From: Salinarchaeum sp. Harcht-Bsk1
GTDB taxonomy: Archaea > Halobacteriota > Halobacteria > Halobacteriales > Salinarchaeaceae
Assembly: GCF_000403645.1 (NCBI RefSeq)
Contig: NC_021313.1
Coordinates: forward strand, 1,321,014 to 1,385,013
Length of the DNA: 64,000 nt
Direction of reading: 5' to 3'
Both the position numbers and the translations under genes were made by a program. The notes beneath the pieces are model-generated. The model was given only the letters and a program-made list of their open reading frames with translations. It was not told where the DNA came from and searched no databases. Below, piece after piece: positions 28,277 to 63,674 of this stretch (positions within the stretch are counted from its first letter, which is position 1; every line of letters starts with the position of its first letter).

Positions 28277-28388
28277 ACGTCCATTCCGAATGACGAGGCC
28301 CATAGTTCTATGTGAGGAGCGATGGTGGATCGCCCCCGACAGCGGAAAGCTATACAACGCTCCCGCCGACAGGGGTGAGCATACGTCT

Positions 28389-31058
28389 ATGTCTCAGGAA
28401 ATCAGCGAGTCGGATGAAGACGATCGGCCAACCCTCCCTATTGAGAAAGGGTATCCCATTGAGCAAGTGAACGAAATTGTTAGCAGAGAAAATCAATCTA
28501 AACGGTACTATCGCCCACTTTACACCATGCACAAATGGTGGGCCCGACGTCTCGGGTCTGTATTCCGGACAATTTCACTCTATACACTCCTCGACGATCC
28601 ACAGTCAATTTCCATCCACAACCCGGGCAGTGACAACCAGAAACTCGGCGATTTTTTGGATGACGGAGAGTCAATTGAAAATCTAGTAGATAATGTTGAT
28701 TTGGGTGATCCCGATTCGCTCTGGCAACTCTATAGCAAGGACGTCAGAGTAGAGGATAAACGAGTTCTGGACCCGTTTATGGGAGGAGGTACCTCGCTAA
28801 TTGAGGCTTCACGGTTCGGTGCATCTGTCGTTGGCAACGACTTGAACCCAGTCGCATGGTTTGTGACTAAGAAAGAGTTAGAAGCCGGTCAGACAGACAT
28901 TTCAGAGCTAGAAGAAGCGTTCAGTAGAGTCGAGGAGCAAGTGAAGAAGGAACTCACTGAACACTACAGCACAGAGTGTCCGAACTGTGAGCGTACGGCT
29001 GACGTGATGTACTATCTCTGGGTGACGGAGTTGGATTGTACTTCTTGTTCCGAAACCGTCTCTCTCTTCAAAGATTACAGAGTGGCAAAGGGCAGATACG
29101 GTGATAAAGACAAGTACAATGTACTCTGCCCAGATTGTGAGTCGATTTTTCACGTAGAGGATTGGCGAAGCGAGTGCGAATGTGACTGTGGGAACAACTT
29201 CGTGCCCGCTGAAGGGCCGGCAAGCGGTGCAGAATACTCCTGCACGAGTTGCGGTCAACAGTACGGCGTTATGGATGCTGGCCGTGAGCAGGGTGGCTAT
29301 GGATCCCGAATGTATGCCATCGAGTACTATTGTCCCCACTGCGACGAAGAAGGGCGTGACCGGGCAGTGTATAAAGGGTATAAGCAGGCCGAAGAGGTCG
29401 ATATTGAGAAATACGAAGCAGCAGTTCGGGAGTGGGAAGATGCCGATGATTTGAGGGAGTTTGTTCCTTCGCAGGACGTCCCTCTAGGAATTCTAACCGA
29501 TAGCACAGCGTTCGAGGGAAGCATTGGTGGAGGACATAATCTACTCGGACACGGCTACGAACAGTGGACGGACATATTCGACGAGCGGCAGCTTCTCTGT
29601 CTGTCAAAACTGCTGGAGGCAATCGATGATGTCGAGAACCAGAATGCTAAGGAGTATCTGTTGTTGGCGCTCTCAGACTCGTTGATGTTTAATAATACAT
29701 TCACGATATATAATCTCCAAGGCCACAAGGTCGAGGGGATCTTTAAGACAAACTCATTCAAGCCCCAGAAGGAGTTTGTTGAAAATAACGTATGGGGTAC
29801 AGAATTCGGCCGGGGAACATTCGTCAAAAGTTGGAAAAAGGTCCTCGCCGGTGTTGAATGGGCAGCTGCCCCTGTGGAGCGATATATCGAAGATGGATCC
29901 ACTCAGAAGACCCCACCCTTCAACAAGGCTGTAGGGGATGACCATGAGGTACACTGTGGGGATGCCCGCCAGTTGGAATACGAGGACGAGTTTGATGCTG
30001 TTCTGACAGATCCCCCATATTACAATAACGTGATCTATTCAGAGTTGTCCAATTTCTTCTACGTATGGCTCCGGATCGTCCTGCAAGATGAGTACGAGCC
30101 GTTCGAAACTGAGACGACTCCACGGGCAGAGAGTATCGTTGCCAATCCTGCCGAAGGGAAGGACGAAACCGACTTCGAGGAAGAACTTCATCAGTCATTC
30201 TCGAAGATTCATCAAGCACTCAAGCAGGACGGAGTTCTCGCCTTTACCTACCATCATAGCGACGCTGAATCGTGGGGAGAGCTCCTCGAAGCACTCTGTG
30301 AGGTTGGCTTCGAAGTAACTGCCACATATCCGGTGACCGCAGATACAAATCGAGCAACCTACAAACTCACCGAGGGAGAATCTGTAGACTTTGACATTAT
30401 CATCGTTGCTCGGCCTGCACAAGACAGGGAGCCAATCTCATGGAATAGTCTCCGGCGCAATATCTACCGTACGGCGCAAAAGACACGAACCCGCCTTGAA
30501 GAAAATCGCAATCTCTCTCGGGGTGACATTGGTGTCGTCGAGATGGGACGGTGTTTCCACGAGTATTCGAAGCACCACGGCGAGGTTAAACGCGCCGGCG
30601 AGCCCATGAGCGCCAAAGATGTCGTCGACGAGATCTACGGCGTCATTCAACACGGCGCCGACGTCGGTGAGATCGACGTGTTTGTTGACCTATTGGAAAC
30701 TCCGAACGCGACCTACGACGACCTCAACAAGCTCACACGAGGGACCGACGCCACGCCCGAGCGCATGGAAGACATGCGCCTCTATCGAATGGAGGATGGT
30801 TTCACGCTCGGGACCTGGGACGACGAGAAGCGCATCGCATACATCCAGTCACGCGTCGACAGTGGTGACGAGCTCACGGACCTCGATAGAGCGCAGTTCC
30901 TCCGATGGCGATGGGAGCAGGGCAAGTCCGTCACCGAGTACCTCGAGCAGTGGGAGATCACCGACGATCTCAGAGAACTGTGTGAAGGACTGGCCGACGC
31001 AACCGGCGACGAGACCTATCGGAACATTCTGGAATCGCGGCTGGGTGACTACCAATGA
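28389..31058 (+). CDS. DUF1156 (COG1743) DNA methyltransferase with zinc-ribbon insert
   Basis: An 889-residue predicted DNA amino-methyltransferase. The N-terminal DUF1156 motif (RYYRPLYTMHKWWARRLGSVFR) leads to the SAM-binding motif DPFMGGGTSLIEASRFGA near residue 129. Then comes a Cys-rich region with several CxxC pairs (about residues 197-320), and the catalytic motif TDPPYYNNVIYSELSNFFYVWLR near residue 540. The order SAM motif, insert, DPPY fits the alpha-like arrangement. ATG at 28389 (MSQEISESDED) is preferred; codons upstream are non-coding in character. It should mark host DNA as self for the DUF499/SNF2 system. Third-position GC rises clearly after about 30540, so the last 170 codons look different from the first 700. 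Confidence 0.87.
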   Translation: MSQEISESDEDDRPTLPIEKGYPIEQVNEIVSRENQSKRYYRPLYTMHKWWARRLGSVFRTISLYTLLDDPQSISIHNPGSDNQKLGDFLDDGESIENLVDNVDLGDPDSLWQLYSKDVRVEDKRVLDPFMGGGTSLIEASRFGASVVGNDLNPVAWFVTKKELEAGQTDISELEEAFSRVEEQVKKELTEHYSTECPNCERTADVMYYLWVTELDCTSCSETVSLFKDYRVAKGRYGDKDKYNVLCPDCESIFHVEDWRSECECDCGNNFVPAEGPASGAEYSCTSCGQQYGVMDAGREQGGYGSRMYAIEYYCPHCDEEGRDRAVYKGYKQAEEVDIEKYEAAVREWEDADDLREFVPSQDVPLGILTDSTAFEGSIGGGHNLLGHGYEQWTDIFDERQLLCLSKLLEAIDDVENQNAKEYLLLALSDSLMFNNTFTIYNLQGHKVEGIFKTNSFKPQKEFVENNVWGTEFGRGTFVKSWKKVLAGVEWAAAPVERYIEDGSTQKTPPFNKAVGDDHEVHCGDARQLEYEDEFDAVLTDPPYYNNVIYSELSNFFYVWLRIVLQDEYEPFETETTPRAESIVANPAEGKDETDFEEELHQSFSKIHQALKQDGVLAFTYHHSDAESWGELLEALCEVGFEVTATYPVTADTNRATYKLTEGESVDFDIIIVARPAQDREPISWNSLRRNIYRTAQKTRTRLEENRNLSRGDIGVVEMGRCFHEYSKHHGEVKRAGEPMSAKDVVDEIYGVIQHGADVGEIDVFVDLLETPNATYDDLNKLTRGTDATPERMEDMRLYRMEDGFTLGTWDDEKRIAYIQSRVDSGDELTDLDRAQFLRWRWEQGKSVTEYLEQWEITDDLRELCEGLADATGDETYRNILESRLGDYQ

Positions 31059-32764
31059 CCCATATGCAGCTTTCCGAACTCCACGTAGAGAATTTCAAAT
31101 CAATCGAGGAGACCCATATCGACTCGGTTGACGATCTTTCCGTGCTCGTTGGGAAAAACGACGCCGGGAAATCATCTGTCTTGGAGGCGGTGAAGATGTT
31201 TTTGGAAGAGAAAGGAAAACCGGAACGCGACCAATTTCACATGGAATGTGATGACGACATCGTCATCACGGCGTTCTTCGAGGACGTTCCTGCCGAGCTT
31301 GCAGATTGTCTGAACGACTCAATCGAACTCACCAACGGCAGACTCAAAATTAGCCGGCGGTGGGAATACCCGGAAGACTCGCGAAGCATGGCCGATACAT
31401 ATCTCGGCCCCGACGAGGAACAATTGGGCGCTGGCACTCTTGTCGGAGACCATGAATCAGATGGGAAGAGGGACACGAGGCAGTATCTCTGGAAGTTGCT
31501 CCCGGACCCGATTTACATTCCAGCTGAGCGCAACATTGCGGAGGAAACCAAATTCAAATCGGATACGTTGATCGACCAGCTGCTCACGCCACTACTGGAA
31601 GAGAATGACGACATCCGATCGAAAAGGAACGAACTGGAAAGCGAGCTGAACGACGGGGTTGATGGATTACAGACCGATATCGAGGATCGACTCACAGATC
31701 ACGTAGACTCGATCAGCCAACTCGAACTCGTAACTGGCGACATCAACCTTGGAAAGGCGTTTTCACCCTCGATTCAGGTAACAGACGAATTCTCAGAAAT
31801 ATCTGTGCCAATTGCGGAACGAGGGTCTGGAGTTGGGAGTTTGCTTGTGCTATCACTCGTTGAAACATACCGAGAACGCCAAGTCGGAGAAGGGTACGTG
31901 ATGCTGTTCGAAGAGCCAGGAAACTGGCTGCATCCTGAGGCGAAACGGCGGATGCTGGGAGCTCTCAAACGGATTTCTGAAAATGGTGGCCAGGTGATGC
32001 TGTCCACCCACTCACCGATTTTCATTGACCGGAGGGGCCATGGAGATGTGTTCCTCGTACAACGGCACGAGGGGAAGACCTCGGTCCGAGAGATTGAGGA
32101 GAATTACCTGACCATCGTCGAGGAATTAGGTGCTAGAAACAGTGATATCCTCCAGAGCGATTTCGTAGTTTACGTTGAGGGGATCACAGACGTTCAGATG
32201 GTTGAGATTGTTGCGGATAACTACCTCAACGAAACCGAGAGGGCCAGAATTACTATCCAACACTTAGGAGGTGGAGGGAATATTCAACAGTGTAGCCTTT
32301 CGGACCTGTCAGAGATTAATCGGACCTTCGGATTTTTGCTCGATAGCGATAAATCGGATCCCGAAGACACTGAGAAAGACTATATCGACGATTTACGCGA
32401 AGAGAACGAAAGTATCGAACCTGAGGTCGTGATCGAGGTACTCGAAAAACGCGAGATTGAGAACTACTTTACCCCAGAGGGAGTGAACGAAGCCCTCAGA
32501 CTCGAAGTCGACTCAGATTTCATTGGCGACTTTGAGGACATCCCGGATAAATTGGGTGCCGAAGTACGGCGTCACCATGCCGGTGAATCAGTTCCACCGC
32601 AAGCAGATCGTACGTGTGACGAATGTGGCCGCATTGAACACCCAGGCAAGGGATATCACAAATCAAAGGGGAAGGATGTTGTTGCAGCAATGTACGATCA
32701 AGGGCAATGCATCGAACCAGTCGAAGATTTCTTTGACGAGGTCAAGCGGATTATCGATGCTTGA
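31055..32764 (+). CDS. OLD-family ATPase with TOPRIM nuclease domain
   Basis: A 569-residue protein. An ABC/SMC-like ATPase N-terminal part has Walker A VGKNDAGKSSVLEA near residue 32, an ABC-type signature ERGSGVGSLLVLS near 258 and Walker B YVMLFEEPGNWLHPEA near 280. A C-terminal TOPRIM domain has VYVEGITDVQMVEIV near residue 372 (the Glu-G site) and LLDSDKSDPED (the DxD site). OLD proteins are DNA nucleases used in antiphage defence, alone or with a UvrD-like helicase (as in Gabija). ATGA overlap with the methylase gene ties it to that operon, yet its DNA is AT-richer than the 3' end of the methylase. The C-terminal 60 residues contain a Cys pair (CDECGRIEH). Confidence 0.83.
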   Translation: MTHMQLSELHVENFKSIEETHIDSVDDLSVLVGKNDAGKSSVLEAVKMFLEEKGKPERDQFHMECDDDIVITAFFEDVPAELADCLNDSIELTNGRLKISRRWEYPEDSRSMADTYLGPDEEQLGAGTLVGDHESDGKRDTRQYLWKLLPDPIYIPAERNIAEETKFKSDTLIDQLLTPLLEENDDIRSKRNELESELNDGVDGLQTDIEDRLTDHVDSISQLELVTGDINLGKAFSPSIQVTDEFSEISVPIAERGSGVGSLLVLSLVETYRERQVGEGYVMLFEEPGNWLHPEAKRRMLGALKRISENGGQVMLSTHSPIFIDRRGHGDVFLVQRHEGKTSVREIEENYLTIVEELGARNSDILQSDFVVYVEGITDVQMVEIVADNYLNETERARITIQHLGGGGNIQQCSLSDLSEINRTFGFLLDSDKSDPEDTEKDYIDDLREENESIEPEVVIEVLEKREIENYFTPEGVNEALRLEVDSDFIGDFEDIPDKLGAEVRRHHAGESVPPQADRTCDECGRIEHPGKGYHKSKGKDVVAAMYDQGQCIEPVEDFFDEVKRIIDA

Positions 32765-32767
32765 CCG

Positions 32768-33094
32768 CTAAATTGGCGCCGTAAACCAGTTAATCAGGAT
32801 ATTCGTTGCAGACCAGCAGAAGCCAAATGCGATGAGGATACCGACTGTTTTCGCTCGAAGTTCCGAGGCAGCGACCGACGCACCGAGCGTTCCCATAATT
32901 ACGTCGAGTATCAATGCAACCTCATTCGTCGGGAAAAACGCCATCATGAATGTATAGAAGGTGCGAGCAAAGATCTCGCTTGACTGATCGACAGAATCGG
33001 AATTCAACAGAAGGAGGAGATAGAGCAGCATTAGGAGACTTCCTGCTGCCGCAACACCCGCAATAAACGCATCCCCGGCGGTTTCAATACTCAT
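32768..33094 (-). CDS. Small three-helix membrane protein
   Basis: A 108-residue protein with three to four hydrophobic segments (about residues 9-30, 52-72 and 82-105). It converges with the OLD gene, with 3 bp between stops. A TTTAAT element on the minus strand lies 24 nt before its ATG, indicating its own leaderless transcript. The family is not recognised. It begins a block of unrecognised, AT-rich genes that include several membrane proteins, as in abortive-infection systems with membrane effectors. Confidence 0.6.
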   Translation of the reverse strand: MSIETAGDAFIAGVAAAGSLLMLLYLLLLLNSDSVDQSSEIFARTFYTFMMAFFPTNEVALILDVIMGTLGASVAASELRAKTVGILIAFGFCWSATNILINWFTAPI

Positions 33095-33115
33095 GTTGGA
33101 CCTTTGTGATAGAGG

Positions 33116-33121
33116 ATTAAA
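33116..33121 (-). promoter_or_regulatory. Box A for the 108-residue membrane gene
   Basis: The minus strand reads TTTAAT inside an AT-rich run (33116-33126), 22-27 nt before the ATG at 33094. This spacing fits a leaderless haloarchaeal mRNA and supports the chosen start. Confidence 0.5.
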
Positions 33122-33177
33122 AATTTGATCTCGAGGAGCAGTAAAATGAGAAGTGCCTAGATGGTGTAATGCCTATA

Positions 33178-33387
33178 TTAGCTTGGGTCCTTCTCGGATA
33201 GCAGAATCAGACTACTGAGGATCGCGATGGCCACAGAGAGAAAGATCAAGAAGTCACCCATCGATCGCGTGGCGACCGCTGTGATCGAGGCAGCAGATCC
33301 CACCGTCGTGGATAGGACCGTCGCCAGCTCGAGAGGTGACCAACGTTGGATAGTGTAGCCACTATCGTCCGAGGGGTTACCTGACAT
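33178..33387 (-). CDS. Small two-helix membrane protein
   Basis: A 69-residue protein with a polar N-terminus (MSGNPSDDSGYTIQRW) and two hydrophobic stretches (about residues 20-38 and 46-63), ending in charged residues. It lies between the 108-residue membrane gene and the 564-residue gene on the same strand. It could be an immunity or effector subunit of the neighbours. No homologue recognised. Confidence 0.5.
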   Translation of the reverse strand: MSGNPSDDSGYTIQRWSPLELATVLSTTVGSAASITAVATRSMGDFLIFLSVAIAILSSLILLSEKDPS

Positions 33388-33405
33388 CGTGGATATTCGC
33401 TCATT

Positions 33406-33419
33406 CCCCGAAACCGGGG
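33406..33419 (-). terminator. Short GC hairpin between the 564-residue gene and the 69-residue gene
   Basis: CCCCG, AAAC loop and CGGGG form a 5-bp stem about 95 bp after the stop of the 33513 gene in its direction of transcription. It may end that transcript or sit in the leader of the next gene. Haloarchaeal terminators depend more on T-runs, so this is tentative. Confidence 0.3.
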
Positions 33420-33512
33420 CGGTGAACGCCTCCTAAGAGTACAGTCATCCGAGAGTATTATAAACGATTACCCACACAGATTGCCGGTTCTGGAAATGCG
33501 GCATCAATTCCC

Positions 33513-35207
33513 TCAGTTCTCGATAGATTCGATGAATCCTGTAAGAGGACCTTCCAGGATCGCGAGGTCCAGGACCGCGAGTAAACAGAGGATCAGCATG
33601 AGTGTGAATAGGACGTAGTAAATCCACAGATCGATCTTGAATTGATGCTTCATGTTTTCACTACCGTCGGCGTCCTTGATTTCTGAAAAAGTATTCTCGT
33701 CAATCCGGTTTTCGTACATGGAATAGTACTGGTTGCGACCGTCCTCGACGGCTTGGAACTGCTGACTCAAGCTGTAGGTTGTCCGGAGACCAAGAAGGAC
33801 GTAAACACCAACAGGCACCAACGACACAATCAGTGCAGTTTGAATCGCTGTAACACCCGATACCTGAGAGAGTATTCCCGCCCACGTGATCGCCACGTAA
33901 GCTACCATTCGAAACAAATCTCGATTCAGGTTATTGGCCAGGCCCCTCCGAATGTCGGAAAGCTCCCTGTGAGTATTTAGAACGTATTCCGTGACATCCT
34001 GTTGTACTTCAACAAATTCCTCAATGCTATCTCGGATGTAAAACTCGAAATTCGATTTGACACTCTCACCGATATCCTCAATTTCGGTGAACATTCCTGA
34101 TATCGACGTCGAATACAAGGTGGCAATGTTCCTAAATACAGAGATTCGATCCGTCGATCGTGACCGGTATATCCAGTTGAAAAGATCGACGAAGTTCTCC
34201 ACGGTCTCTTTATCAATATCCGTTAAACTGTCCCCACCCTCCTCTACAAGAACCAATCCATCGTCGTCGTTCAGAACAAGATTCGACTCGATGACCCGGC
34301 GCCCGTTGATGCGAACTTGCCACCCACTTTCTGTCATCCGGCTGACGTTCGATACACCTAAAATTCCAGAAATTATCCGGTGCGGTTGTAAAGAGGATTG
34401 AATTTGCTCTGCGAAATCAGAGCGTTCAGAGGCATCGAGTTTCGTATAATCCGGCGGGAGATACTGATCCTCAAAGCGATCAATTGCACATTCTCGCCTA
34501 ATTCGCTGTAACTGATCTTCGACGTACGATTCTCTCTGTAAGAACGAATGGAAGTCGTTTTCACCGAGTCGGTCGGGAGGGAAGTACCCCACTTCGGGGC
34601 CTGAAATTGCTTGGACGAGATCTCGAATGACAAACAGCCGCTTCCCTCCAGAACAGTAATAGTACTCTTTCAATTCATCGAAGGATAACCCGTTGACACT
34701 GTCGACAACCTCAGACTTCTCAAAATGGTAACTAACGCAACAATCTAGGTCGAGTTGATTCTGAAGATATTCGTCAACGCTCGCCCCGTCGATTACATAC
34801 TGAAAATTCGAATCGACCTCGCCTGATTCTAAAAGCGCAGAAATACACTCCACTAGATGATCTTTCGATGAGAGAGTATCGTTACGTACCGATCGAAAAG
34901 CGGACTTCGATCGTTCCTGGCCAAATAGACGGTCAATCTCCGCCTCATTGTCTGATCTCCGCTCAATTGTTACGTCACCGGAAATCTCCCAGAGAATTCG
35001 GTAAACGAACGCAGATGCTTGATGTTCGAGTTCAATAATCAGATTGCGCCCGTCGAACAATTCACGAATATCCTCAACGGTCTCGAAAATTGACTCAACA
35101 TCCTCAGAAGAGAGATCGTCCTCAATCCTCAGGCGTCGACCTACAACCTCTATTTCCCAATCTGCCTCAAGGCGATCAATATATCTCTCAAAGTCCGATA
35201 TCATCAA
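33513..35207 (-). CDS. Unrecognised 564-residue protein with C-terminal membrane domain
   Basis: The first 420 residues are soluble and acidic/mixed, with no known motif (FERYIDRLEADWEIEVVGRRL; NLIIELEHQASAFVYRILWEIS; EYYYCSGGKRLFVIRDLVQAI). Residues about 430-475 form two membrane helices (VAYVAITWAGILSQV and TALIVSLVPVGVYVLLGL) and a third lies near 525-550 (WIYYVLFTLMLILCLLAVLDLAIL). The region just before the membrane part is a long helix (EFVEVQQDVTEYVLNTHRELSDIRRGL), as in CorA-like or effector architectures where a soluble sensor drives a membrane pore; that is inference. The start overlaps the 35204 gene by 4 bp, so the two are made together. The DNA is AT-rich compared with its surroundings. 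Confidence 0.7.
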   Translation of the reverse strand: MMISDFERYIDRLEADWEIEVVGRRLRIEDDLSSEDVESIFETVEDIRELFDGRNLIIELEHQASAFVYRILWEISGDVTIERRSDNEAEIDRLFGQERSKSAFRSVRNDTLSSKDHLVECISALLESGEVDSNFQYVIDGASVDEYLQNQLDLDCCVSYHFEKSEVVDSVNGLSFDELKEYYYCSGGKRLFVIRDLVQAISGPEVGYFPPDRLGENDFHSFLQRESYVEDQLQRIRRECAIDRFEDQYLPPDYTKLDASERSDFAEQIQSSLQPHRIISGILGVSNVSRMTESGWQVRINGRRVIESNLVLNDDDGLVLVEEGGDSLTDIDKETVENFVDLFNWIYRSRSTDRISVFRNIATLYSTSISGMFTEIEDIGESVKSNFEFYIRDSIEEFVEVQQDVTEYVLNTHRELSDIRRGLANNLNRDLFRMVAYVAITWAGILSQVSGVTAIQTALIVSLVPVGVYVLLGLRTTYSLSQQFQAVEDGRNQYYSMYENRIDENTFSEIKDADGSENMKHQFKIDLWIYYVLFTLMLILCLLAVLDLAILEGPLTGFIESIEN

Positions 35208-36214
35208 CTATCAAGTACTTCGGTATCAAGTTCTGTTCCGCGTATCGTCACACGTACATCATCTTCGCTCTCTTCTTTTTCAACCCTGTCTTCCGCCGTT
35301 GAGGGGAATTTGACCCGAATCTCCTTGTCCACCTCGTACTTTACTGTACTTGGAAGGTTCTCAGTATCGATTGCCAGCGCATCTGGATTCTCCACTCCCA
35401 AGCGGTCTCCTAGTTCTTCTCGGGTAACCTGCCGTCCAACGATATCACTGGCAACGGCCGTCACCTCATCGATCCCCACGATCCCTGAATCTGATTGTTC
35501 TTTCAGCTCTCTAAAGCGCGAGGTATCTGCTCCGTCGGCGCTTTGGCCAGTGTGTTCCTTCTTCAACTCGCTCACTACTTCGAATACGTTCTTTGCTTGC
35601 TCGAGAGATCCTTCTTCGACCTCACACTGGAGAAATTCATGGAAGTAGTCTGAAACAGACCCAGACTGATAGAATTTTACATCTCCCGGAAGCCGATAGC
35701 CCTCGGCTTGAACGATCGGATAAATTAAACCCTTCTGAAGTTCGTTTGGCTCTGGGAAAATATCTTCCAAGTCTAACTCTTCAATCCCTCTATCGTCTGC
35801 GAGTCTTAGCCGTTCTTCCTCGACTAGATCCAGTTTGAGGACTGAGACAATCTCATGTTCCTCGTTATCAAGAAGTGGCTCTCCCTCAACTGTTGCCTGG
35901 ATAATAAATAATACGCCATCATTTGCCCGGGGATGAATCTGAGAATTCAACTCCTCTGCCAGCGCTTTTCCAGCTGCTTCAAATTCGTCTGGAGAGGAGT
36001 TGAAATCTGTCGTCCTTGCGGTTTCCAACCATTCCTCTGCCTCTGTATCCGAGGTCACGAAATCTCCACGGGTGACGTCGGAGATATCCGCCTTCACTAC
36101 AACTTGCTCGATATACCGTTCAAACAGCTCCAGATCTTCGTCAATATCTCCGCCTACAGATTCCTTCCATTGGTTTGCATTGTCAAGGCTAGGAGAGACC
36201 GGAGAATAGGTCAT
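35204..36214 (-). CDS. Unrecognised 336-residue acidic protein, partner of the membrane protein
   Basis: From ATG at 36214 (MTYSPVSPSLDNANQW) this is a soluble acidic protein. Its middle part (GVLFIIQATVEGEPLLDNEEHEIVSVLKLDLVEEERL) faintly recalls the NdpA/nucleoid-associated or DUF4868 (KwaB-like) fold, where a strand pair ending in LKL is conserved. I do not claim membership. A longer frame begins with TTG at 36259 and ATG at 36235. However, a TTTAAA box at 36237-36242 lies 25 nt before 36214, the exact spacing of a leaderless haloarchaeal start, which decides the start. It overlaps the 564-residue membrane gene by 4 bp. If the KwaB resemblance is real, the pair would be a soluble sensor plus membrane effector. 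Confidence 0.65.
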   Translation of the reverse strand: MTYSPVSPSLDNANQWKESVGGDIDEDLELFERYIEQVVVKADISDVTRGDFVTSDTEAEEWLETARTTDFNSSPDEFEAAGKALAEELNSQIHPRANDGVLFIIQATVEGEPLLDNEEHEIVSVLKLDLVEEERLRLADDRGIEELDLEDIFPEPNELQKGLIYPIVQAEGYRLPGDVKFYQSGSVSDYFHEFLQCEVEEGSLEQAKNVFEVVSELKKEHTGQSADGADTSRFRELKEQSDSGIVGIDEVTAVASDIVGRQVTREELGDRLGVENPDALAIDTENLPSTVKYEVDKEIRVKFPSTAEDRVEKEESEDDVRVTIRGTELDTEVLDS

Positions 36215-36236
36215 CGAATGTATTTCCGAATTCATG

Positions 36237-36242
36237 TTTAAA
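36237..36242 (-). promoter_or_regulatory. Box A (TTTAAA) of the two-gene 33513/35204 operon
   Basis: A perfect palindromic TTTAAA is centred 25 nt upstream of the ATG at 36214. It overlaps the codons that a longer reading of the gene would need, so it both marks the promoter and sets the start. Confidence 0.6.
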
Positions 36243-36448: not shown

Positions 36449-38209
36449 ATGAAGGAGAGAAACCTCGTGGAGGTGGCCTTCAACCACGAGGAGGCTGACC
36501 GGCCGGTGGAGAGAGATAGGGCTTCAGGTAAGCTCAAAAACCATCGAATTTCTATAGAGGCCAACCGACTAAAAGCCGGCAAGCCCGACACAGAGCTCCG
36601 CTCCCTCTCCCACCTCGATCAAGAAGCTGTCAAGCTCCTCGAGCACCAGGTCGACGCGGCTCATCGCGCCCTCTTCGAGATGGATGGCAAGGCGCTCCTC
36701 GCCGACGAAGTGGGCCTCGGGAAGACAATCGAGGTCGGGATGATCCTCGCAGAGATGCACCACCGAGGGACTGACGAAGCAGTGCTCATCCTCACGCCGG
36801 CCCAGCTCGCTCAGCAGTGGCAGGCCGAACTCCTCGAGAAGTTTGGCCTGGAGTTCGTCTGCAACTACGACGACGAGTTCGAGGGGTTCGGCGTGCACGA
36901 CCGGATCATCGCCAGCATCGACACCGCCAAGAGCGATCGCCACCGATCGACGGTCCTCGCCCGGGACTGGGATGTCCTCGTCCTCGACGAGGCCCACTAC
37001 GTTAAAAACGAGGAGACGGATCGCTACGATCTCGTCGACAGGCTCTCCTACGACTACGCGTTCTTCCTCACGGCGACGCCGATCCAAAACGACGTCACCG
37101 ACCTCTACAACGTCGTCTCGCTCCTCCGACCCGGGCTCTTCGGAACGCGGGAGGCCTTCCACAACTACTTCGTCGAGAACGGTCAGGACACGCTGGTCAA
37201 TCGCGACGACCTCCAGCAACGGCTCCGCAACGTCATGATCCGCAACCGGCGCGAGGAGACGGATATCGACTTCACGGAGCGGAACGTCACGACGACAACC
37301 TTCGAGCCCTCTCCCACCGAGCGCGACCTCTACGAAGCTGTAACGAACTACGTCCGGGGTGCATATCGCGAAAGTCAAGGACAGAAGCTCGTCCTGATGA
37401 CGCTCCAGAAGGAAGTCGTCAGCAGTCCAGCCGCCCTCAGGGGCACGATCGAGAAGCGCCTCGACGACGATGAAGACGAACCACCGGCCCACTCCGACGA
37501 GCTCGAATACATTCTCGAGTGTGCCGACGCCGTCGAGACGCCAACCAAGCTTAAGCATCTCCGGGAAATCACCGAAGAAGCCGCAGAACGAGTCAAGAAA
37601 GGGCGAGTGGTTGTTTTTACTCAGTTCCGGGCCACCCAGTCCTTGATCCTGGAAACGCTCCGAGAGGAAGGCTACACTGTTCACGCATTCCACGGTGGAC
37701 ACTCCAGCGACGAGAAGGAAGCAATCGTCGAGCGGTTCGAGGACGAGGGGGGCGTGCTCGTCTCGACGGACGCCATGAACGAGGGGCGAAACCTCCAGTT
37801 TTGTAATGTGATGGTGAACTACGATCTCCCCTGGAACCCGATGAAGGTCGAACAGCGGATCGGCCGCATCCACCGCATCGGCCAGGACCGCGAGGTCTAC
37901 GTCTTCAACGTCGCTCTGGAGGATACCATCGAGGAGTACGTCTTGGAAAAGCTCTATCACAAGATCGATCTCTTCCAACAATCCGTCGGCGAGCTCAGCG
38001 AGATCCTCACCCGGCTCGAGGAGACCGGCCGAAACTTCGAGGACGAAGTCTTCGAGCGCCTCGTCGACGCCGACTCCGACATCGAGCTCGAGAACGACTT
38101 CGACGCAATGGCCGTTGATCTCCAGGAACAACGCGAACTCGCTGACAAGGTGAGCGACTTCAACACCGGCGTCTTCGAGGGCTTCGATCTGGGGGCAGAC
38201 GATGACTGA
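36449..38209 (+). CDS. SNF2-family helicase/translocase of the methylase-DUF499 system
   Basis: A 586-residue superfamily 2 translocase. Motif I DEVGLGKTIE is near residue 86, motif II VLVLDEAHYVKN near 178, and motif III FLTATPIQND near 203. The second RecA domain has VVVFTQFRATQS, GVLVSTDAMNEGRNLQFC (motif V) and VEQRIGRIHRIGQDR (motif VI). It belongs to the RapA/HepA-like group used as DrmD in DISARM and as companion of DUF1156 methylases. It likely moves along DNA rather than unwinding it. Together with the methylase (28389) and the DUF499 ATPase (21906) it makes a complete predicted system, interrupted here by the 31-36 kb genes. The stop overlaps the next gene by 8 bp. Confidence 0.87.
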   Translation: MKERNLVEVAFNHEEADRPVERDRASGKLKNHRISIEANRLKAGKPDTELRSLSHLDQEAVKLLEHQVDAAHRALFEMDGKALLADEVGLGKTIEVGMILAEMHHRGTDEAVLILTPAQLAQQWQAELLEKFGLEFVCNYDDEFEGFGVHDRIIASIDTAKSDRHRSTVLARDWDVLVLDEAHYVKNEETDRYDLVDRLSYDYAFFLTATPIQNDVTDLYNVVSLLRPGLFGTREAFHNYFVENGQDTLVNRDDLQQRLRNVMIRNRREETDIDFTERNVTTTTFEPSPTERDLYEAVTNYVRGAYRESQGQKLVLMTLQKEVVSSPAALRGTIEKRLDDDEDEPPAHSDELEYILECADAVETPTKLKHLREITEEAAERVKKGRVVVFTQFRATQSLILETLREEGYTVHAFHGGHSSDEKEAIVERFEDEGGVLVSTDAMNEGRNLQFCNVMVNYDLPWNPMKVEQRIGRIHRIGQDREVYVFNVALEDTIEEYVLEKLYHKIDLFQQSVGELSEILTRLEETGRNFEDEVFERLVDADSDIELENDFDAMAVDLQEQRELADKVSDFNTGVFEGFDLGADDD

Positions 38210-40072: not shown

Positions 40073-40299
40073 GTGGGGCGTCAGTAAACACCTAGGGATA
40101 CGTCACATTGATACTGTGCAAGGAGGGGTTGAATCGCGAAACTTCCGGCATTTCGATTGTCGGTGCCGGAAACCGGCTCTTCTCGGTTACAGAGACTGCT
40201 CTACAGTAGAAGATCCGATACAGCGGACAGAGGAATTCCGCACGTTTTCGAGACGCCGTGCGACAACGAAGTCAGGGGATCCTCAAAGGGCAGATGGGC

Positions 40300-41370
40300 A
40301 TGTCTCAAGACGCCCTCGAACCGATCGAACCGGAGCGAGCGATTGAACTGTACCTCGAGGATCGAAGCGACGAGCTCAGGACCGCAACGCAACGCGCCCA
40401 TCGGTCTGCACTCGGCATCTTCGAAGAGTGGGCAGCGGAATACGGCCTCACCAACCTCAACGACCTCAGTGGGCGCGACCTCATCGCGTTCAAGAACTGG
40501 CGAAAGAAGGAGACGGACATCTCGACGGTCACGCTCAACGGGGCCCTCGGGATTCTCAAGCGGTTCTTCCGCTTTTGTGAGATCATCGAAGCCGTCGAGC
40601 CTGACTTCCACGAGCGCGTTCCGTTGCCCAACGTCCCACCGGACGCGGAAGTCAAGGACGACGCCCCGGAGGACGAGGCCGTCGAAGCGATTCGGTCGTA
40701 CTACCAGCAATTCGAGTATGCGTCGCGCCGCCACACCCAGTTCGAACTGATTGCTGAAATAGGCGTGAGGCTCGGCACAGCCATCGCGATCGATCTCGAC
40801 GACATTCAGTGGGATCGGGAAGCCATACAGATCAGACATCGACCCATGGAGTCCGAGGGAGAGACGCCCCTGAAGAACGGGGCCGGTGGAGAGCGAATCG
40901 TCAACCTCTCGCCGTCGTTCACCGGACTACTGGAGGATTACGTCCAGCACAATCGCCACGACGTCGAAGACGACGTTGGTCGCGAGCCACTGTTCACGAC
41001 GTCAAAAGGCCGGGCGTCGACGACCACGATCCGGAGGGACTTCTATAAACTCACGCGACCCTGCGAGTACTCGAACGACTGTCCGCACGATCGCGACATC
41101 AGCGATTGTGAGGCGACGGCTCCCGTACAGGCGACGACTTGTCCGTCCTCGTTCACCACCCATCCGCTCCGAAAGTGGTCGATCATGCAGCAACTGAACG
41201 ACGGCGTTCCCAAGGAAATCCTCAGTGACAGGGTGGACGTCTCCGTTCCGATCCTCGACAAGCACTACGACCAGCGGAGCGAAGAGCGGAAATCACAGCG
41301 GCGACGGGAGGTCCTCGAGTCCAACCACAGGCAATATCACATGACGGACGGTGGTAGTAGGGAAGAATAG
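40300..41370 (+). CDS. Tyrosine recombinase/integrase (internal copy 1)
   Basis: A 356-residue integrase. The N-terminal SAM-like core-binding domain (TATQRAHRSALGIFEEW...NDLSGRDLIAFKNWRK) is followed by the catalytic domain, with Arg in EIGVRLGTAIAIDLDD, His-x-x-Arg in THPLRKW and Tyr in ILDKHYDQR. A Cys-rich insert (CEYSNDCPHDRDISDCEA then CPSS) precedes HxxR and is shared with the integrase at 49652, so it may bind zinc. ATG at 40300 (MSQDALEPIEPERA) is preferred. The two internal integrases are clear paralogues (same motifs, same insert, same ends) and bracket the AddAB-like genes. It directly faces addA (60 bp between stops). Confidence 0.88.
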   Translation: MSQDALEPIEPERAIELYLEDRSDELRTATQRAHRSALGIFEEWAAEYGLTNLNDLSGRDLIAFKNWRKKETDISTVTLNGALGILKRFFRFCEIIEAVEPDFHERVPLPNVPPDAEVKDDAPEDEAVEAIRSYYQQFEYASRRHTQFELIAEIGVRLGTAIAIDLDDIQWDREAIQIRHRPMESEGETPLKNGAGGERIVNLSPSFTGLLEDYVQHNRHDVEDDVGREPLFTTSKGRASTTTIRRDFYKLTRPCEYSNDCPHDRDISDCEATAPVQATTCPSSFTTHPLRKWSIMQQLNDGVPKEILSDRVDVSVPILDKHYDQRSEERKSQRRREVLESNHRQYHMTDGGSREE

Positions 41371-41430: not shown

Positions 41431-44400
41431 CTATTCATTTTCGCGACGCTCGGCGACAGTCGATGCGATCCGCGCATCCAGTTCTTCGGTCAGACTCTCG
41501 AGGTCCTCGGGTATCCAGTGGAACCGTTCCGGGTGATCCGAGGTCGTGAAGAGTAACGTCGCCTCTACCTCTCGCTCGGGATCGGCCTGGTGAAGCGCGA
41601 CCGCGTACGCTCGCATCTGCCAGGCATGGTGCTCCGCCTTCTCCTGAATTCGAGCCCGGTCCTCTACAGCGCTCGTCTTGTAGTCGACGACGTGGAACGC
41701 ATCCTCGGTGACCACCAGCCGGTCGATGTCCTTATAGACCTCGCCCGATTCGAGCGTTGCCCGCACGGGCTTCTCGTCCACTGCGGTCCCCTGGATCCCT
41801 TCGACGAACTCGACAGCTGTCCGGACGTGTGCCTGCAGCTCGGAGATGTCCGAATCCTCGATTCTCACGAACTCGTCGTCCTCGGTTGCGAACTGCTCGG
41901 CCATCCGCCGAATCGTCATCTCGTCTTCTGGAGTCACACCAAGCTCAACCGCTTTGTGGACGACGTCGCCAAAGACGTTCCGCGGCATCGAGCCTGCCCC
42001 GCCATCGCCCACCGGTCCCTCGTAATCCGGCGGCGTGTAGCTGACGTAGCGCCCCGTGTGATCCATCGTGACGTCGCCGGGGGCGCCATCCTCGATCAAC
42101 GAGCCAAGGTACGAGGCCGGTATCGAATACTCCGGGTCCAACCCCGACGTTTCGACGTCGAGAGTCAGCTCCGGTGACTCCTCCGATCCAGATTGCTGTA
42201 GTTCGGTTCCCTCCAAAGGAAGTCGGACCGTCGCTCGCCCCATCCCGTTCCGAAGCGCCGTCGCCTCCCCTTTCGCCGCCAGATTGGCGATAGCATCGTC
42301 GTCGAAGAGCACCGGCCCGATTAGGTCGTGCCAGTTCGAGGGGTCCGCTTCATCACCAGTGTCGAGTGATTCGATCCCATCGCCGTCACACCCGACCGTC
42401 CCGACAAGCCGCAGGTGATCCCGAGCCCGCGTCATCGCAACGTAGAGAATCCGCTTCTCCTCGGCCACTGCCTCGCGCTTGCGCTGGAACTCCAGGCGCC
42501 GCTTGAGTGTCGTGTTGGCTTCCTCGAACGCGTCACCAACTGAGAGCCCCTTGATCCCCAACAGCGTCGTCCGCTCGCTTGATACAAGATCCTCAACCGT
42601 CTCGAACTCCGCGATGCCCTCGCCATGGCTCGCTTTGAGATTGAAATCCTTCGAGATCCCCGGCACGAACACCGCCGGGAACTCCCGCCCCTTCGCGTCG
42701 TGGATCGTCATGATCCGGACGCCGTCGGCGTCCTCCGGCACCGTCGCCTCACCCTCCCGCGTGGAGAGTTCGACCTCCCGCTCGATTCGCTCGACGAGCG
42801 CCGGCAGCGTTTGCAGGCCGTCCTCGCTCCAGCCACGGAGCCGCGAGCGGAACTTCTCGACGTTCGCGACGGCCTGCTGACCTCGCTCGCCGACGGCCAG
42901 GCTCGCGAGGAAGCCGGTGTCCTCGATGATCCGGCCCAGCAGAGAGTCCCACGACTCGACGACGGTCGTCGGTCCGTCGGCCCCAGCCAGCCCCCGCCAG
43001 CGCTCGATGGCCTCACGAGCGGCGGAGAGTTCCTCGTGATCGGTTCTCTCCAGCGCAGCCCAGAGCTCCCCGCTGCCGACCTCCTTGCGGTCTACGTCCT
43101 CCCAGAGCCCGACGACCGTCGGATCGTCGAAGCCGAAAAGCGGCGAGCGCAACACGCCGAACAGCGCGAGGTCGTCGTCCGGATCCTGGAGAACGCTGAA
43201 GAGATTCCGCAGTGCCACGATCTCGGGGCTGTCGTAGAAGCCGATGCCGGAGGCGACGGTGTAGGGCACGTTCAGCGATGCAAGTGCCCGCTCGTATGTC
43301 TCGAGGTGCGTCCGCTTGCGGAGCAAGATCGCGACGTCGGACGGGTCGAGATCAGTCGGCCTGTCGTCTACCTCGCCGTCTTCCTCTTGCTCGTATCGTT
43401 GGGTATCCCCGTCGAGCAGCGATGCCACCTCACCGGCGAGCGCCCTGGCGTCGAGTTCGACGGAATCGTCCGGTAAATCCCGGAGCGGATGCTCCGCATC
43501 GAGCACCCCTTCTCTCACTTCTTCCTCCTCGGGCACCGCTACGAACGTCGTCTCTGTGCCGACGCCGTCGTGATCCGATCGATCGGGCTGGAGCGCCTGG
43601 GGATCGGGCTCGAACTCCGTCGCGTCGCCGTCGATCCCGGGCGGTGCGTCTCTGTGGATCTCGGGGACGCTCCCGAACACCTCATCGAAGAGCCCGTTGA
43701 TCGGCTCGAGGACCGACGGAAGCGACCGGAAGTTCACCGACAGATCTCGCTCGCCAGCGTTCTCGTACACCGAGTCCAGCGGGGGCGTTCCGGCCCGCTC
43801 GTTTGCCCCGGCAAGTCGCATCCGCTCCGCCCGGTACTGCGTGACGTCGGCGCCCCGGAAGCGGAAGATGCTCTGCTTCTCGTCACCGACGACGAAGACG
43901 TTCAGCCGATCGTATTCGTCATCGAGAGAGGTGAGCAACTCGACCAGTTCCCACTGGCGCGGATCGGTGTCCTGGACCTCGTCGAGCATGACGTGGTCGA
44001 ACGTCTCGCGGAGGTCCTCGCGAACGTCCGGAGACGACTGTAACAGCTCGATGGCGCCGTCGATGAGGTCGGCGAAGTCCAGGACGTTCTCCCGGCGCTT
44101 GCGCTCCTCGTAGGCGTCGTGCAGGTCTTGGAAGAGCGAGGCGAGCGCGACGTAATACTCGCCAGCGTTCCGGTCGACGCCGAGCCGATCCGGGATCGCC
44201 CACTCTTCGACGGAGAAGGCGTCGACGAGCTCCGTCGTGGCTGCTTCGTAGCGGTTCCCGTTCGCGCCGGCCCAATCGCCGTGTCGATCGTAGGCCCAGC
44301 TGTCCCAGCCGCCGTTGTAGGGCGTGCCGTCCGCTGTGAGGGCCTCACAGATCGCTGCAGCGGCGTCATGGATCTCCACGTCTCCAGGGCATCCACAGGG

Positions 44401-45188
44401 AGCCCGGGGCGCTCGTCGCCGCCGTACGTCTCGACGGCCTCCGCGACGTTCCTCGCGATTCCGATGCGGTTCTGGCCAGCATCCTCCTCGGCAGCCACCT
44501 GCTGCAGGTCGCCGAGCGCGTTCTGGACTGACGTCCGGCCCAACCGATCCCGCGCATCGTCGGGATCGATCGGTGAGTATCGCTTCTGGACGAATTCGAG
44601 ATACTCCGCAGCGTCTCGGTCGGCCCACTCGTCGGCCCACTGGCGGGCGTCGTGGTGCTCGGCCAGCAGATCGCCGAGGAGCTCATCAAGCCGGTCCCGA
44701 TAGTAGAGCTCGGTGAGGCGCTCGATGCGGGGATCCTCGAGGTTCTCCTCGACGAACCGCTCGACGGTCTCGAGCTGATGCCCTCTGGCGGCCGTCTCCT
44801 CGATCACGTCGAAGCCCACGGGGACGTCGGCCTCCAGGGCGTACTCACGAAGCAGTCGCGAGCAGAAGCCGTGGATCGTGTGGACGTAGGCCTCCGGGAG
44901 CGCGTCGTGGTACTCGCGCCACCGGTCGTACTCCTCGCCATCGAGGCCGGAGAGCCGGTCACCCACCGACGACCGCACCCGCTCCTCGAGCTCCGTTGCA
45001 CCGCTCTCCGTGAAGGTGATTGCGGCGATAGAGTGGGGGTCGGCGTCGGTCTGCTCCAGCAGCTTCAGATACCGCATCGCGAACGTCGTCGTCTTCCCGC
45101 TCCCGGCGCCGGCCGTAACGGCGTAGTTCCGGTCGTGGGCGAGGGCGGCGAGCTGCTGGGGCTCCTCCAGGTCCTCGAAGTCGACCAT
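41431..45188 (-). pseudogene. AddA/RecB-like helicase-nuclease gene, frameshifted near 44380
   Basis: Two overlapping frames encode one protein of about 1250 residues. Frame one (45188 to about 44380) holds the start MVDFEDLEEPQQ and Walker A VTAGAGSGKTTT. Frame two (about 44380 to 41431) holds DEVQDTDPRQW (motif II), VGDEKQSIFRFRGAD, MTIHDAKGREFPAVFVPG, YVAMTRARDHLRL and a C-terminal nuclease with HVVDYKTSA (D-x-K). In frame one LPVDALE runs straight into non-coding composition, while frame two resumes with VEIHDAAAAICEAL; a single missing base around 44376-44383 would explain it. Either the gene is inactive or the assembly has an error. It is an UvrD-type helicase with PD-(D/E)XK nuclease for DNA ends, overlapping its addB partner. 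Confidence 0.75.
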
Positions 45189-48100
45189 CAGTTACCACCT
45201 CCGGCGCCGTAGGCGTCCAAATCGAGCTCCGCGTCCCGGGCTCGCTCGGAGACGTAGTGCTCGCCTTCGTCGATCTCGTCGAGTTGGTCCTGTCGGAGGT
45301 GATGGCGCACGTCGCAGGAATTCCGGAACGTGCAATCCTCGCAATCGGCGTGGTCCGCGCTCAACAAGGTCGTGTGGAACGCGCCGTCGTCGATGGCCGA
45401 CGCGATCCGACCGAGCCGCGACGAGGTCACATCGCGAATGAACCGTCGGTGCTGCTCGACGTCGTCGAACGGGAGCCGCCAGGTCTGGCCCGTCGGCGTG
45501 ACGAGCGGGAGCCCGTCGTCTGACCCGACGGCCGCTTTCGAGGTTACCTGCCCGGCAGTCGGATCGACGTCGGTCGGTGATTTGAGCCCATAGTAGGAGC
45601 CACCGATGGCCTCGTGGGGAATGCCAGTCGCGTCCTCAAGAATCTCCTCGAGGGCGAGGCCGTAAAGGGGAAGCTGGAGCTTCGTCCCGTCGGTGACGTC
45701 GGCCCTGGCCGGAGTATTCCCGGTCTTGTAGTCTCGAACGTAGATCCCGCGGACCCCGTCGGGAAGATGGGGCGACGCCCCATCGGGAACGACGTCGATG
45801 CGGTCGGCGATCCCCGACACGTCGACAGGCCCGTCGGGTGTCTCGACGGTCACCGGCTCCTCGGCCAGCAGCTCGACGTCGTCAAGATAGTCGATGCCGA
45901 TCGCCCCCTCGAAATAGGTCGGGCGTGCATGGGCGCCGTCGGCCGACTCGAGTTCGGCATCGAGGAAGCGGACGAAGAGCCCATCAGCCCCGTCGTGTGA
46001 TGGGCCGTAATAGGGGTTCTCCGAGGGGGACCCCAGTCCCGCGAGGATCCGGGTGACGGTCCGCCGGGCGAAGGGCGTCTCGATCGATCCCAATTCGTCG
46101 ACGCGGGCAAGCGATTTCGAGAGTAGCTCTGACTCGAGGTGTTCTCGATCAAACTCGGAGAGGGCGACCGGGGAATGGGCCTCTTCGCGGAGCTCGCGAT
46201 AGAAGTCCGCGAGGACCTCGTGGATGAAGATTCCTCGGTCGGCCCGACTGACGTCGTTCTCCTCGCCGTAGTCCTCGTCGAACCCCAGGACGTTGTTAGC
46301 GAGGTAGAGGAACGGACAGCGGGCGTAGTTCTCCAGGGCACTCGGGCTGTAGGGCTCCCGTCGCCAACTCGGGTAGATCTCCTCGAGTAGCTCGCCGATA
46401 TGCCCGTCGTGAGCCGTGTGATGGGGCTGGGCCCGTCGCCAGGCAGTCGTGAGGCCCCTCTCAGCGAAGGTCCGTCCGTCGTCGGTGAGCCCGTCGGCCC
46501 CGTCGAGGGCTGCGACGGGCTCGTCGACGGAGTCGAACGACTGGGGACCGGCCCACTTGGCGTACCGCCGCTGGACGTCTTCGCTCGTCACCGACGGGGC
46601 TCCGTCGGGAGCGCCGTCGGTTGGCCAGACGGATCGGCCGGCCTCATCTCCGTCGGACGGCCCGTCGACGTACCGTCGGAGTTCGGTGACGACGGGCGCC
46701 GGAACGTGCTCGACGCCATCGACGGAGTGCCGTGGGGTGGATAGCACCACCTGGCCGGAGCCCGTGAGCAACGTTCCGAGAATGTACCGGGCCCGTCGGC
46801 CGGTATGGGCCCGACTGAACTCCTCGTCGGCGTCGTTAACGGCGCCGAAGAAGGCCATCGTGTCCTGTTCCGTCGGGAAGTAGCCCGACGTCAGCCCGAG
46901 CACGAAGGTGTGCTCGAAGGAGGCCATCTCGGCTTCCGCCATCGGGAGCACCCGGACGTAGCCGTCGCGCTGGCTCGGTCCGCCGACCAGTTCGGCGCGT
47001 AACGCCCGTCGGCCCCGACCGACGGGCTCCTCGTCGGAGACTTTCGGAGCGATGGCCTCGAGGGAGTCGAGCACCCCTTCGACCGACTCCCAGGCCGACC
47101 GCTCGTAGGCGGGTCGATGGGAGCCCGTCGCCGTCGACGGCGATCCGTGCTCCTCGACGGCTTCGCCGACGGTGAGGTCTTCCAGGAGGTCCCCGAGCTC
47201 CTTCACGTAGCCCGCCAGGGACGCGCCGTCGGGATCCACCCGGTCGCGGAGGTCTTCGATCCCGACGGCCGTCGTCGCGGCCTCGTCGTCCTCGAGCGCG
47301 TCGAGCAGGGCCTCGATTGAGTCCCCGTCAGCCGACTCCTTCGCCCGACGGACCGCGGCCGGGTCGACGCCGAACGCCTCCAGCGAGACGAGTGCGTTCG
47401 AACAGAGCGATCTGAGTGGAGTTACGCCGGATTCCCCGTCGGCGAGATCCAGGAGCCCCTCGACGGCGTCACCGACGAGGGTCTGCTCGATCCCGATGTC
47501 GTTCGTGAACGTGAACGGGACGTCGTAGCCCCCGAGCGTCTCGGCGAGGATCCCCCGGTACGTCGTCCGGTCAGTGACGACGACGCCGACGTCGGACGGG
47601 TCGACGTCGTTCCGGGCGAGCAGCCCGCGAATCCGACGGGCGATCGTCCGTACTTCCTCGCGCTCCGTCGACGGTTCGAGCCACTCGATGCCTACCTCCG
47701 ACGGGGCGTACGACCGCGGATCGCGGGAGGCGACGTGGAGGCTCCGAACGGCGTCCAGCCGTCGGTCGTCGACGGACTCGGGGGGCTTGTAATCGAGCTG
47801 GAAGCCGATCGCCTGGTAGACCGTGAGCTCCTGTTGGACGCCGAAGTCGAGTCCATTCCCACCCATCGAGTCGTGGACGAGCGACAGGACGGCGACCGTC
47901 GGGAGGTTCCGACCAATTCGGGCGATGGTCTCCCGTTCGGCTGGGGCGAGTCGGGTCAGTCCATCGAGGACGACGGCGTCGACGGAAGCCGGGACGGCGT
48001 CGAGTAATTGGTCGCCGTCGAGCAACGCCAGATACTGCTCGGAATTGACCGTCTTCCAGTCGGGATGAAGCTCCTCACGGAGCGATTGATATTCGGCATA

Positions 48101-48688: not shown

Positions 48689-48728
48689 TCTGCTTGGCCC
48701 CAGCTTGTTCGGGGGATCCAAATCTGGC

Positions 48729-48749
48729 AATTCGCTTGAGTAGCGAATT
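48729..48749. promoter_or_regulatory. Perfect inverted repeat upstream of addB
   Basis: Arms AATTCGCT and AGCGAATT (8 bp) with a 5-nt spacer lie about 40 bp upstream of the preferred addB start. A candidate operator or hairpin in the leader. Confidence 0.45.
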
Positions 48750-48753
48750 CCGG

Positions 48754-48770
48754 TGTAACAGTCCGTTACA
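48754..48770. promoter_or_regulatory. TGTAAC-N5-GTTACA palindrome (operator-like, site 1)
   Basis: A perfect 6-bp dyad with 5-nt spacer, followed by GC. A second, closely related dyad lies 65 bp away at 48820-48834. Both end in GTTACAGC, so they look like two sites for one dimeric regulator of addB. Confidence 0.5.
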
Positions 48771-48819
48771 GCACCAGTCTCGGAGTTGGCGGCTGATCGG
48801 TCGCCATCCAATCCGTGAC

Positions 48820-48834
48820 GTAACAGAGTGTTAC
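48820..48834. promoter_or_regulatory. GTAACA-N3-TGTTAC palindrome (operator-like, site 2)
   Basis: A perfect 6-bp dyad with 3-nt spacer, centred 65 bp from the similar dyad at 48754-48770, which is about six helical turns. The pair suggests cooperative binding on one DNA face. Confidence 0.5.
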
Positions 48835-49016
48835 AGCGCCTCTCGCGATCAAATGTGCCCGGCCTCATCGGGCCCGGCGGATTTGCGATTAGTCGGCCGG
48901 CAGAAACGGATGCCGGTGATATGGATCGGACTCTGCGACGGCTGGCCTCGATCCTTCTCCCGTGAGCGTCCAGGCCTATCCAACCGGCACCGCGGAGGTC
49001 GAAACGCCGAATTCCC

Positions 49017-62765: not shown

Positions 62766-62983
62766 CCCAAGGTTCGTTGATTCGGGAAGTGGCTAGGGCA
62801 GTCAGCAACGGCCGAGCATGCGAGGCCGTGTTCGACGCGGCAATTTCGAGAGCGGGGCGGAATTCGAACGAGCCATACAAGAGAAGGTATCTGTCGCGTG
62901 GGACGGAACACGAGTGCCCATCGGCTAGGAGCGTCGGGGACGACGTGAGACACCCGATGGCGAGTGCGTTGCCACCCCGACCG

Positions 62984-63316: not shown

Positions 63317-63398
63317 GGAGACAAGCAGCCAGTTTCCCGGTAATGCAAAATATTTTTGTGTTATATTTCAAGTCTCCCAATCTGTATCTTCTCGTCGG

Positions 63399-63650: not shown

Positions 63651-63674
63651 TTTCGGTCCTATTCCGAGTTTCCA

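What the first reader, a model, noticed from the sequence alone, without database searches (positions are those of the whole stretch)
32768..36242. Candidate new membrane-linked defence module inside the methylase system
Two genes overlapping by 4 bp encode a soluble acidic protein (35204-36214) and a 564-residue protein with a large soluble part and three C-terminal membrane helices. Two tiny membrane proteins lie beside them. The block is AT-rich, has its own box A promoters, and splits the methylase from the helicase. Soluble sensor plus membrane effector is the layout of several abortive systems (Kiwa and others), yet I recognise no family.
Basis: partly seen in the sequence, partly recalled or inferred. 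Interest (0 to 1): 0.75.

Follow-up and report, generated by a model that had tools for sequence, protein, structure and literature searches.

The report
Archaeal NA37–membrane two-gene defence module
Two neighbouring genes in a salt-loving archaeon make a DNA-binding-type protein and a membrane-anchored partner that always travel together among antiviral genes, and they look like a distant archaeal branch of an E. coli anti-phage gene pair that was reported only recently and whose mechanism has not been published in the papers I could read.

Summary
The pair is real. B (35204-36235, -, 343 aa) and A (33513-35204, -, 563 aa, C-terminal membrane helices) are adjacent, in the same order, in all 14 places where both could be read whole (13 haloarchaeal loci and one euryarchaeon of another class), with identities down to about 16%. 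Their pairwise identities correlate at r = 0.96 (Mantel P = 0.0001). Nine of the 14 loci hold strong PADLOC models (type I RM, BREX, Hma-like and others); cross-hits to defence genes occur in 7/14 pair loci versus 0/40 spaced control regions.

An E. coli prophage pair has the same plan (NA37 plus membrane protein), and RefSeq calls it "nucleoid-associated anti-phage protein" and "anti-phage protein". Archaeal B matches that NA37 clearly. Archaeal A matches the bacterial partner weakly but collinearly (0/397 decoys). A 2026 paper reports an E. coli defence system with a YejK domain.

So this is probably the archaeal branch of that system. Best mechanism: membrane-tethered DNA binding, working like Kiwa; KwaB homology was tested and not found. 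The two small membrane ORFs do not belong.

The parts
35204..36235 (-). Gene B, 343 aa, divergent NA37/YejK nucleoid-associated family protein, acidic and soluble
   Evidence: Pfam NA37 in 11/11 members (window copy 20.4-20.7 bits, just under the 24.6 cut-off; relatives up to 40 bits). Start set by relatives.
33513..35204 (-). Gene A, 563 aa, soluble head plus linker helix plus membrane region; starts at the ATG overlapping B's stop (TGATG)
   Evidence: No Pfam, NCBIfam or PDB match.
34215..35204 (-). A residues 1-330: soluble alpha/beta head, the fastest-diverging part (56-64% identical to close relatives)
   Evidence: AlphaFold mean pLDDT 80 for the whole protein, mostly 80-93 in this part; region identities.
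33867..34214 (-). A residues 331-446: conserved linker with [DE]RxxVxRNxxTLY motif and long helix entering the membrane (386-446 is 95-97% identical to close relatives)
   Evidence: region aligned to the bacterial partner.
33516..33866 (-). A residues 447-563: membrane region; with the end of the long helix about three membrane helices (about 432-447, 454-472, 527-549)
33178..33387 (-). 69-aa ORF, one hydrophobic segment: NOT part of the module
   Evidence: No relative next to any other A-B pair.
32768..33094 (-). 108-aa ORF, up to three hydrophobic segments: NOT part of the module
   Evidence: Relatives only in genomes without A/B.
36449..38209 (+). Neighbour: SNF2 helicase (DrmD/BrxH/HmaA-like), divergent from B
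   Evidence: PADLOC, Pfam.
28290..32764 (+). Neighbours: HmaB-like adenine methylase (28290-31058) and OLD-type ATPase-TOPRIM (31055-32764)
   Evidence: PADLOC.

Best explanation
A and B form a two-gene antiviral module, a haloarchaeal branch of the NA37-plus-membrane-protein system found in E. coli prophages (probability about 0.85 that it is an antiviral module, about 0.75 that it is the same system as the E. coli pair). Most likely mechanism (about 0.45): A sits in the cell membrane by its C-terminal helices with its large head in the cytoplasm. The head recognises something that varies with the virus at or near the membrane. The conserved long helix passes this to, or holds, the NA37 protein B, which binds the incoming or early viral DNA and blocks its transcription or replication, or keeps it at the membrane. 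It would thus work like Kiwa (membrane sensor plus DNA-binding partner). Shown here: the pair, its conservation, its context, B's family, its relation to the bacterial B. Weakly shown: relation of A to the bacterial partner. Inferred: membrane topology, DNA binding by B, the A-B complex, recognition by the head, and the antiviral effect in archaea.
For: B immediately upstream of A in all 14 loci where both are complete, down to 16% identity; co-inheritance r = 0.96, P = 0.0001. Patchy spread: 12 of 394 genomes of the order, absent from the sampled same-genus and same-family genomes, present on two plasmids. Defence neighbours, 7/14 against 0/40 control regions, P = 2e-5; between brxC and pglX of a BREX locus (L042); alone between two tyrosine recombinases (L023). 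B = NA37, matches the E. coli protein (21.9 bits, 0/448 decoys; hhalign 8e-5 over 208 columns; 0/398 decoys). A versus bacterial partner: hhalign 0.004, 150 columns in order through linker and membrane region, 0/397 decoys. RefSeq names for the E. coli pair. PMC13092281: validated system with a YejK domain. Conservation: B 86-88%, long helix 95-97%, head 56-64% identical to close relatives. Kiwa mechanism as summarised in PMC12904381.
Against: No experiment on the archaeal pair. I could not confirm that the E. coli pair in RefSeq is the very system tested in PMC13092281 (supplement not readable). The A-to-bacterial-A match is weak; the best window-15 decoy scored 31.7 against 32.3. The heads do not match. 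No nuclease or other catalytic motif was recognised, and B's DNA binding is taken from its family. B's own model is poor (pLDDT 49). Two of 14 loci (L057, L061) have no strong defence neighbour, and L023, L025, L043 only ambiguous ones.
Confidence: 0.45

Rival explanations
1. Abortive infection: B senses viral DNA or altered nucleoid state, and A is the effector whose membrane helices open or depolarise the membrane and kill or stall the cell.
For: Soluble plus membrane-helix layout; long conserved helix running into the membrane; several known systems are built so (own knowledge).
Against: The membrane helices are not more conserved than the head across the family (mean identity 0.31 and 0.28 against 0.46 for the long helix) and show no invariant charged residues. 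The head, not B, varies most.
Confidence: 0.25
2. Accessory or regulator of the neighbouring restriction, BREX or Hma-like systems rather than an independent defence module.
For: It sits inside the Hma-like and BREX loci in several genomes.
Against: Neighbour systems differ from locus to locus, the pair stands alone between recombinases in L023 and on a plasmid, and the bacterial pair stands alone in prophages. The window's own BREX locus lacks it.
Confidence: 0.1
3. Not antiviral: a nucleoid-to-membrane tether or a stability or transfer function of mobile elements (as NdpA2 regulates transfer of ICE PAPI-1, PMC8565334), which rides along in defence islands.
For: NA37 proteins occur on many bacterial plasmids; NdpA2 controls ICE transfer.
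Against: Most plasmid NA37 proteins are close to YejK, and the one I looked at has no partner gene in the same direction behind it; the bacterial pair is named anti-phage.
Confidence: 0.12

Closest known systems
E. coli NA37 + membrane protein anti-phage pair (WP_000355468 'nucleoid-associated anti-phage protein' and WP_000150292 'anti-phage protein'); probably the YejK-domain system of DefensePredictor (PMC13092281)
   Same: Two genes, NA37 first and membrane protein second, mobile; B homologous; linker and membrane part of A collinear with a shared [DE]R..V.R motif.
   Different: A is 563-586 aa against about 375-415; the heads do not match; E. coli B carries an extra N-terminal zinc-ribbon-like CxxC...CxxC part; archaeal sets lie mostly in defence islands, E. 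coli ones between holin and antiterminator genes of prophages.
Kiwa (KwaA-KwaB)
   Same: Membrane protein plus soluble DNA-associated partner in two genes.
   Different: KwaB (PF16162) does not match B or A in profile comparison; A is far larger than the KwaA-like neighbours seen in haloarchaea. KwaB itself exists in other haloarchaea.
YejK/NdpA (NA37) nucleoid-associated proteins
   Same: B's family, matched over most of its length.
   Different: YejK has no such partner beside it in E. coli K-12; B always has partner A except in L048 and a broken copy in L049.
PADLOC candidate PDC-M63 (B component)
   Same: Weak match of A's linker region to PDC-M63B, best E = 0.001, matched by 3 of 9 members; two genes in an E. 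coli prophage.
   Different: Relation not proven; deletion of PDC-M63AB gave no phenotype in E. coli NILS69 (PMC12409345).

Membership tests
NA37/YejK family (B) | Match to Pfam NA37 at the curated cut-off over most of the length | tested here: met
   Relatives at 33.9-40 bits against 24.6; the window copy itself 20.4-20.7, just below.
NA37/YejK family (B) | DNA binding | not testable with these tools
   Inferred from the family only.
E. coli NA37 + membrane protein anti-phage system | NA37 gene directly followed by a gene for a protein with a C-terminal membrane part | tested here: met
   All 14 archaeal loci and five bacterial ones.
E. coli NA37 + membrane protein anti-phage system | Homology of the NA37 components | tested here: met
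E. coli NA37 + membrane protein anti-phage system | Homology of the membrane components | tested here: inconclusive
   hhalign 0.004 over 150 collinear columns, 0/397 decoys, but marginal score and no match in the heads; no match to the single E. coli sequence.
E. coli NA37 + membrane protein anti-phage system | Protection against viruses | not testable with these tools
   Needs an infection experiment; published only for an E. coli system with a YejK domain.
Kiwa | KwaB (PF16162) homologue | tested here: not met
   No Pfam KwaB match and hhalign probabilities of 0.1%.
Kiwa | Membrane protein plus DNA-binding partner that stop infection at the membrane | not testable with these tools
   Layout agrees; function unknown.
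PDC-M63 | PDC-M63B homologue | tested here: inconclusive
   Best E = 0.001; a family search in haloarchaea found nothing anywhere, controls included.

The most novel reading that the evidence does not exclude
A family of membrane receptors with fast-changing heads, present in bacteria and archaea, that place a nucleoid-type protein on viral DNA as it enters or starts to work, so that the genome is silenced by packaging rather than cut.
Probability: 0.3. Interest if true: 0.8.

Novelty: new variant of a known kind. Interest (0 to 1): 0.57.

Why it matters
It links an archaeal gene pair that the family libraries used here do not recognise as a set to a recently reported E. coli anti-phage system, and gives a diverse protein set for finding which parts matter. 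The comparison singles out a constant core (B, the [DE]RxxVxR linker, the long helix) and a variable head, which makes a receptor model directly testable. Defence by a nucleoid-type DNA-binding protein without recognised nuclease motifs would add to the small group of DNA-binding, non-cutting defences such as Kiwa.

Tried and rejected
KwaB homology of B or A: no support. GHKL ATPase fold for A's head: all top PDB fold hits are Hsp90/MutL/GyrB types, but E is 0.03-0.5, TM-scores are low, and by eye I see no N-box or DxGxG/GxGLG motifs in the alignment; not accepted. Viral fold library: nothing significant. B's fold: model too poor, search meaningless. Relatives in viral contigs and phages: none. 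Small membrane ORFs as partners: rejected. PDC-M63 identity: could not be settled. The third gene of about 240 aa behind A in L022 and L041 is accessory, absent from the window and the other loci. The control for defence context uses regularly spaced 20-kb regions of the same genomes and a reference set taken from the pair loci themselves (own hits excluded), so it is a modest control.

Full report
What is there. In the window, B (35204-36235, -) and A (33513-35204, -) form a tight pair: B's stop and A's ATG share a base (TGATG). Relatives show that B starts at 36235. A is 563 aa, B 343 aa. The block has 47% G+C in a genome whose other sampled stretches have 63-68%.

Is it a unit. A was found in 12 of 394 genomes of the order and B in 11 of 294 of the class. 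B lies directly before A in every locus where both are complete: 13 haloarchaeal loci (window included) and G515, a euryarchaeon of another class. Identity falls to about 16% for A, so pairing has been kept over long divergence. Pairwise identities of A and B correlate at 0.96, Mantel P = 0.0001. Between close relatives dN/dS is about 0.05-0.12 (the larger distances are near saturation). The sampled genomes of the same genus and family lack it, and it occurs on two plasmids: it moves.

Where it lies. PADLOC models mark the neighbours as type I restriction (L041, L024, L045), a BREX operon with the pair between brxC and pglX (L042), Hma-like methylase and helicase with DUF262 (window, L022), type IIG enzyme and DrmD-like helicase (L026), Hhe and HEC-05 (L028), HEC-05 and a type II enzyme (L044). 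L023, L043 and L025 are ambiguous; L057 and L061 show no strong defence neighbour. As a control, defence proteins from other loci hit 7 of 14 pair loci and none of 40 spaced 20-kb regions of the same genomes (P = 2e-5). In L023 the pair is alone between two opposed tyrosine recombinases, so two genes seem enough to be a unit. The window's own BREX locus lacks the pair at the place where L042 has it.

What the proteins are. B matches Pfam NA37 in all 11 members scanned; three proteins of the family pass the curated cut-off (40, 34.9 and 33.9 bits), and the window copy falls just short. A matches nothing in Pfam, NCBIfam or PDB sequences. AlphaFold gives A a good model (pLDDT 80): an alpha/beta head (1-330), a helical linker, a 60-residue helix into the membrane and further membrane helices. 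No fold match is significant. B could not be modelled well.

The bacterial counterpart. A full-text search led to PMC13092281, which reports 42 validated E. coli systems, one with a YejK nucleoid-associated domain, new to defence. A search with YejK found a divergent NA37 gene in an E. coli prophage plasmid, between holin and antiterminator Q genes, followed by a membrane-protein gene. In intact copies some RefSeq records now name the two 'nucleoid-associated anti-phage protein' and 'anti-phage protein'; the pair is in 106 of 5426 E. coli genomes. Klebsiella, Paraglaciecola, Methylobacter (beside a helicase and an AAA ATPase) and Pseudomonas carry diverged pairs. I could not read the paper's supplement, so that the RefSeq pair is the tested system is likely, not shown.

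Are they related. Archaeal B profile against E. coli B: 21.9 bits, 0 of 448 decoys. Profile against profile: 8e-5 over 208 columns, through the SDYF..FLGC motif, 0 of 398 decoys. Archaeal A against bacterial A: E = 0.004 over 150 columns, in order from a shared [DE]RxxVxR motif through the long helix and membrane part; 0 of 397 layout-preserving decoys, though two came close. The heads show no match. With the same gene order, homology of the whole pair is the better reading, but for A it is not proven.

How it may work. Between close relatives the head of A is 56-64% identical, the long helix 95-97% and B 86-88%; over the family the long helix is again the best conserved. A variable head and constant B and helix fit a receptor whose target varies and whose output does not. 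NA37 proteins are nucleoid-associated, so B's likely partner is DNA. No nuclease motif was recognised. The best reading is a membrane-held DNA-binding defence, like Kiwa in layout; PMC12904381 describes KwaB as binding, not cutting, injected DNA. Kinship with KwaB was tested and not found. The abortive reading is the main rival.

Verdict. It is a new, archaeal, strongly diverged variant of a recently reported kind. The text of PMC13092281 names three systems with Halobacteria homologues, taken from the other 31 systems and not from the group with the YejK system; whether its figure shows archaeal homologues of the YejK system I could not see.

Noticed in passing
window 41431-45188 (-): The AddA/UvrD-like helicase reads as two overlapping frames (43902-45188 and 41431-44640), which suggests a frameshift or sequencing error near 44.2-44.6 kb.
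   Followed up: no
window 62765-63671, L042:8836-12239: The window holds its own BREX operon (53.7 kb onward). Between the second brxC and pglX it has about 0.9 kb of other sequence where genome G244 carries an A-B pair.
   Followed up: partly
L023:7182-12924: The A-B pair is the only cargo between two opposed tyrosine recombinases (51% identical to each other); a 20-nt inverted repeat (85%) lies outside them. It may be a small mobile unit.
   Followed up: partly
L022:11810-12532, L041:11804-12532: A third gene (about 240 aa, hydrophobic N-terminus) follows A in these two loci (81% identical) though the surrounding defence systems differ; absent elsewhere.
   Followed up: partly
window 33513-35204: All top PDB fold hits of A are GHKL ATPases at non-significant E-values, although I see no GHKL motif in the sequence.
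   Followed up: partly
L113:6981-8188; E. coli JB2 (H73): In E. coli MS 69-1 the membrane partner gene is annotated as two pieces in different frames, and in strain JB2 the pair is interrupted by an IS5-type element; intact copies exist in other strains.
   Followed up: no
L048:9469-10578, L049:9977-10762: A lone divergent B gene (G174) and a truncated B (G115) without A.
   Followed up: no
window 40258-41370 and 49652-50731: Two related tyrosine recombinase genes bracket the helicase/nuclease block 41431-48868.
   Followed up: no
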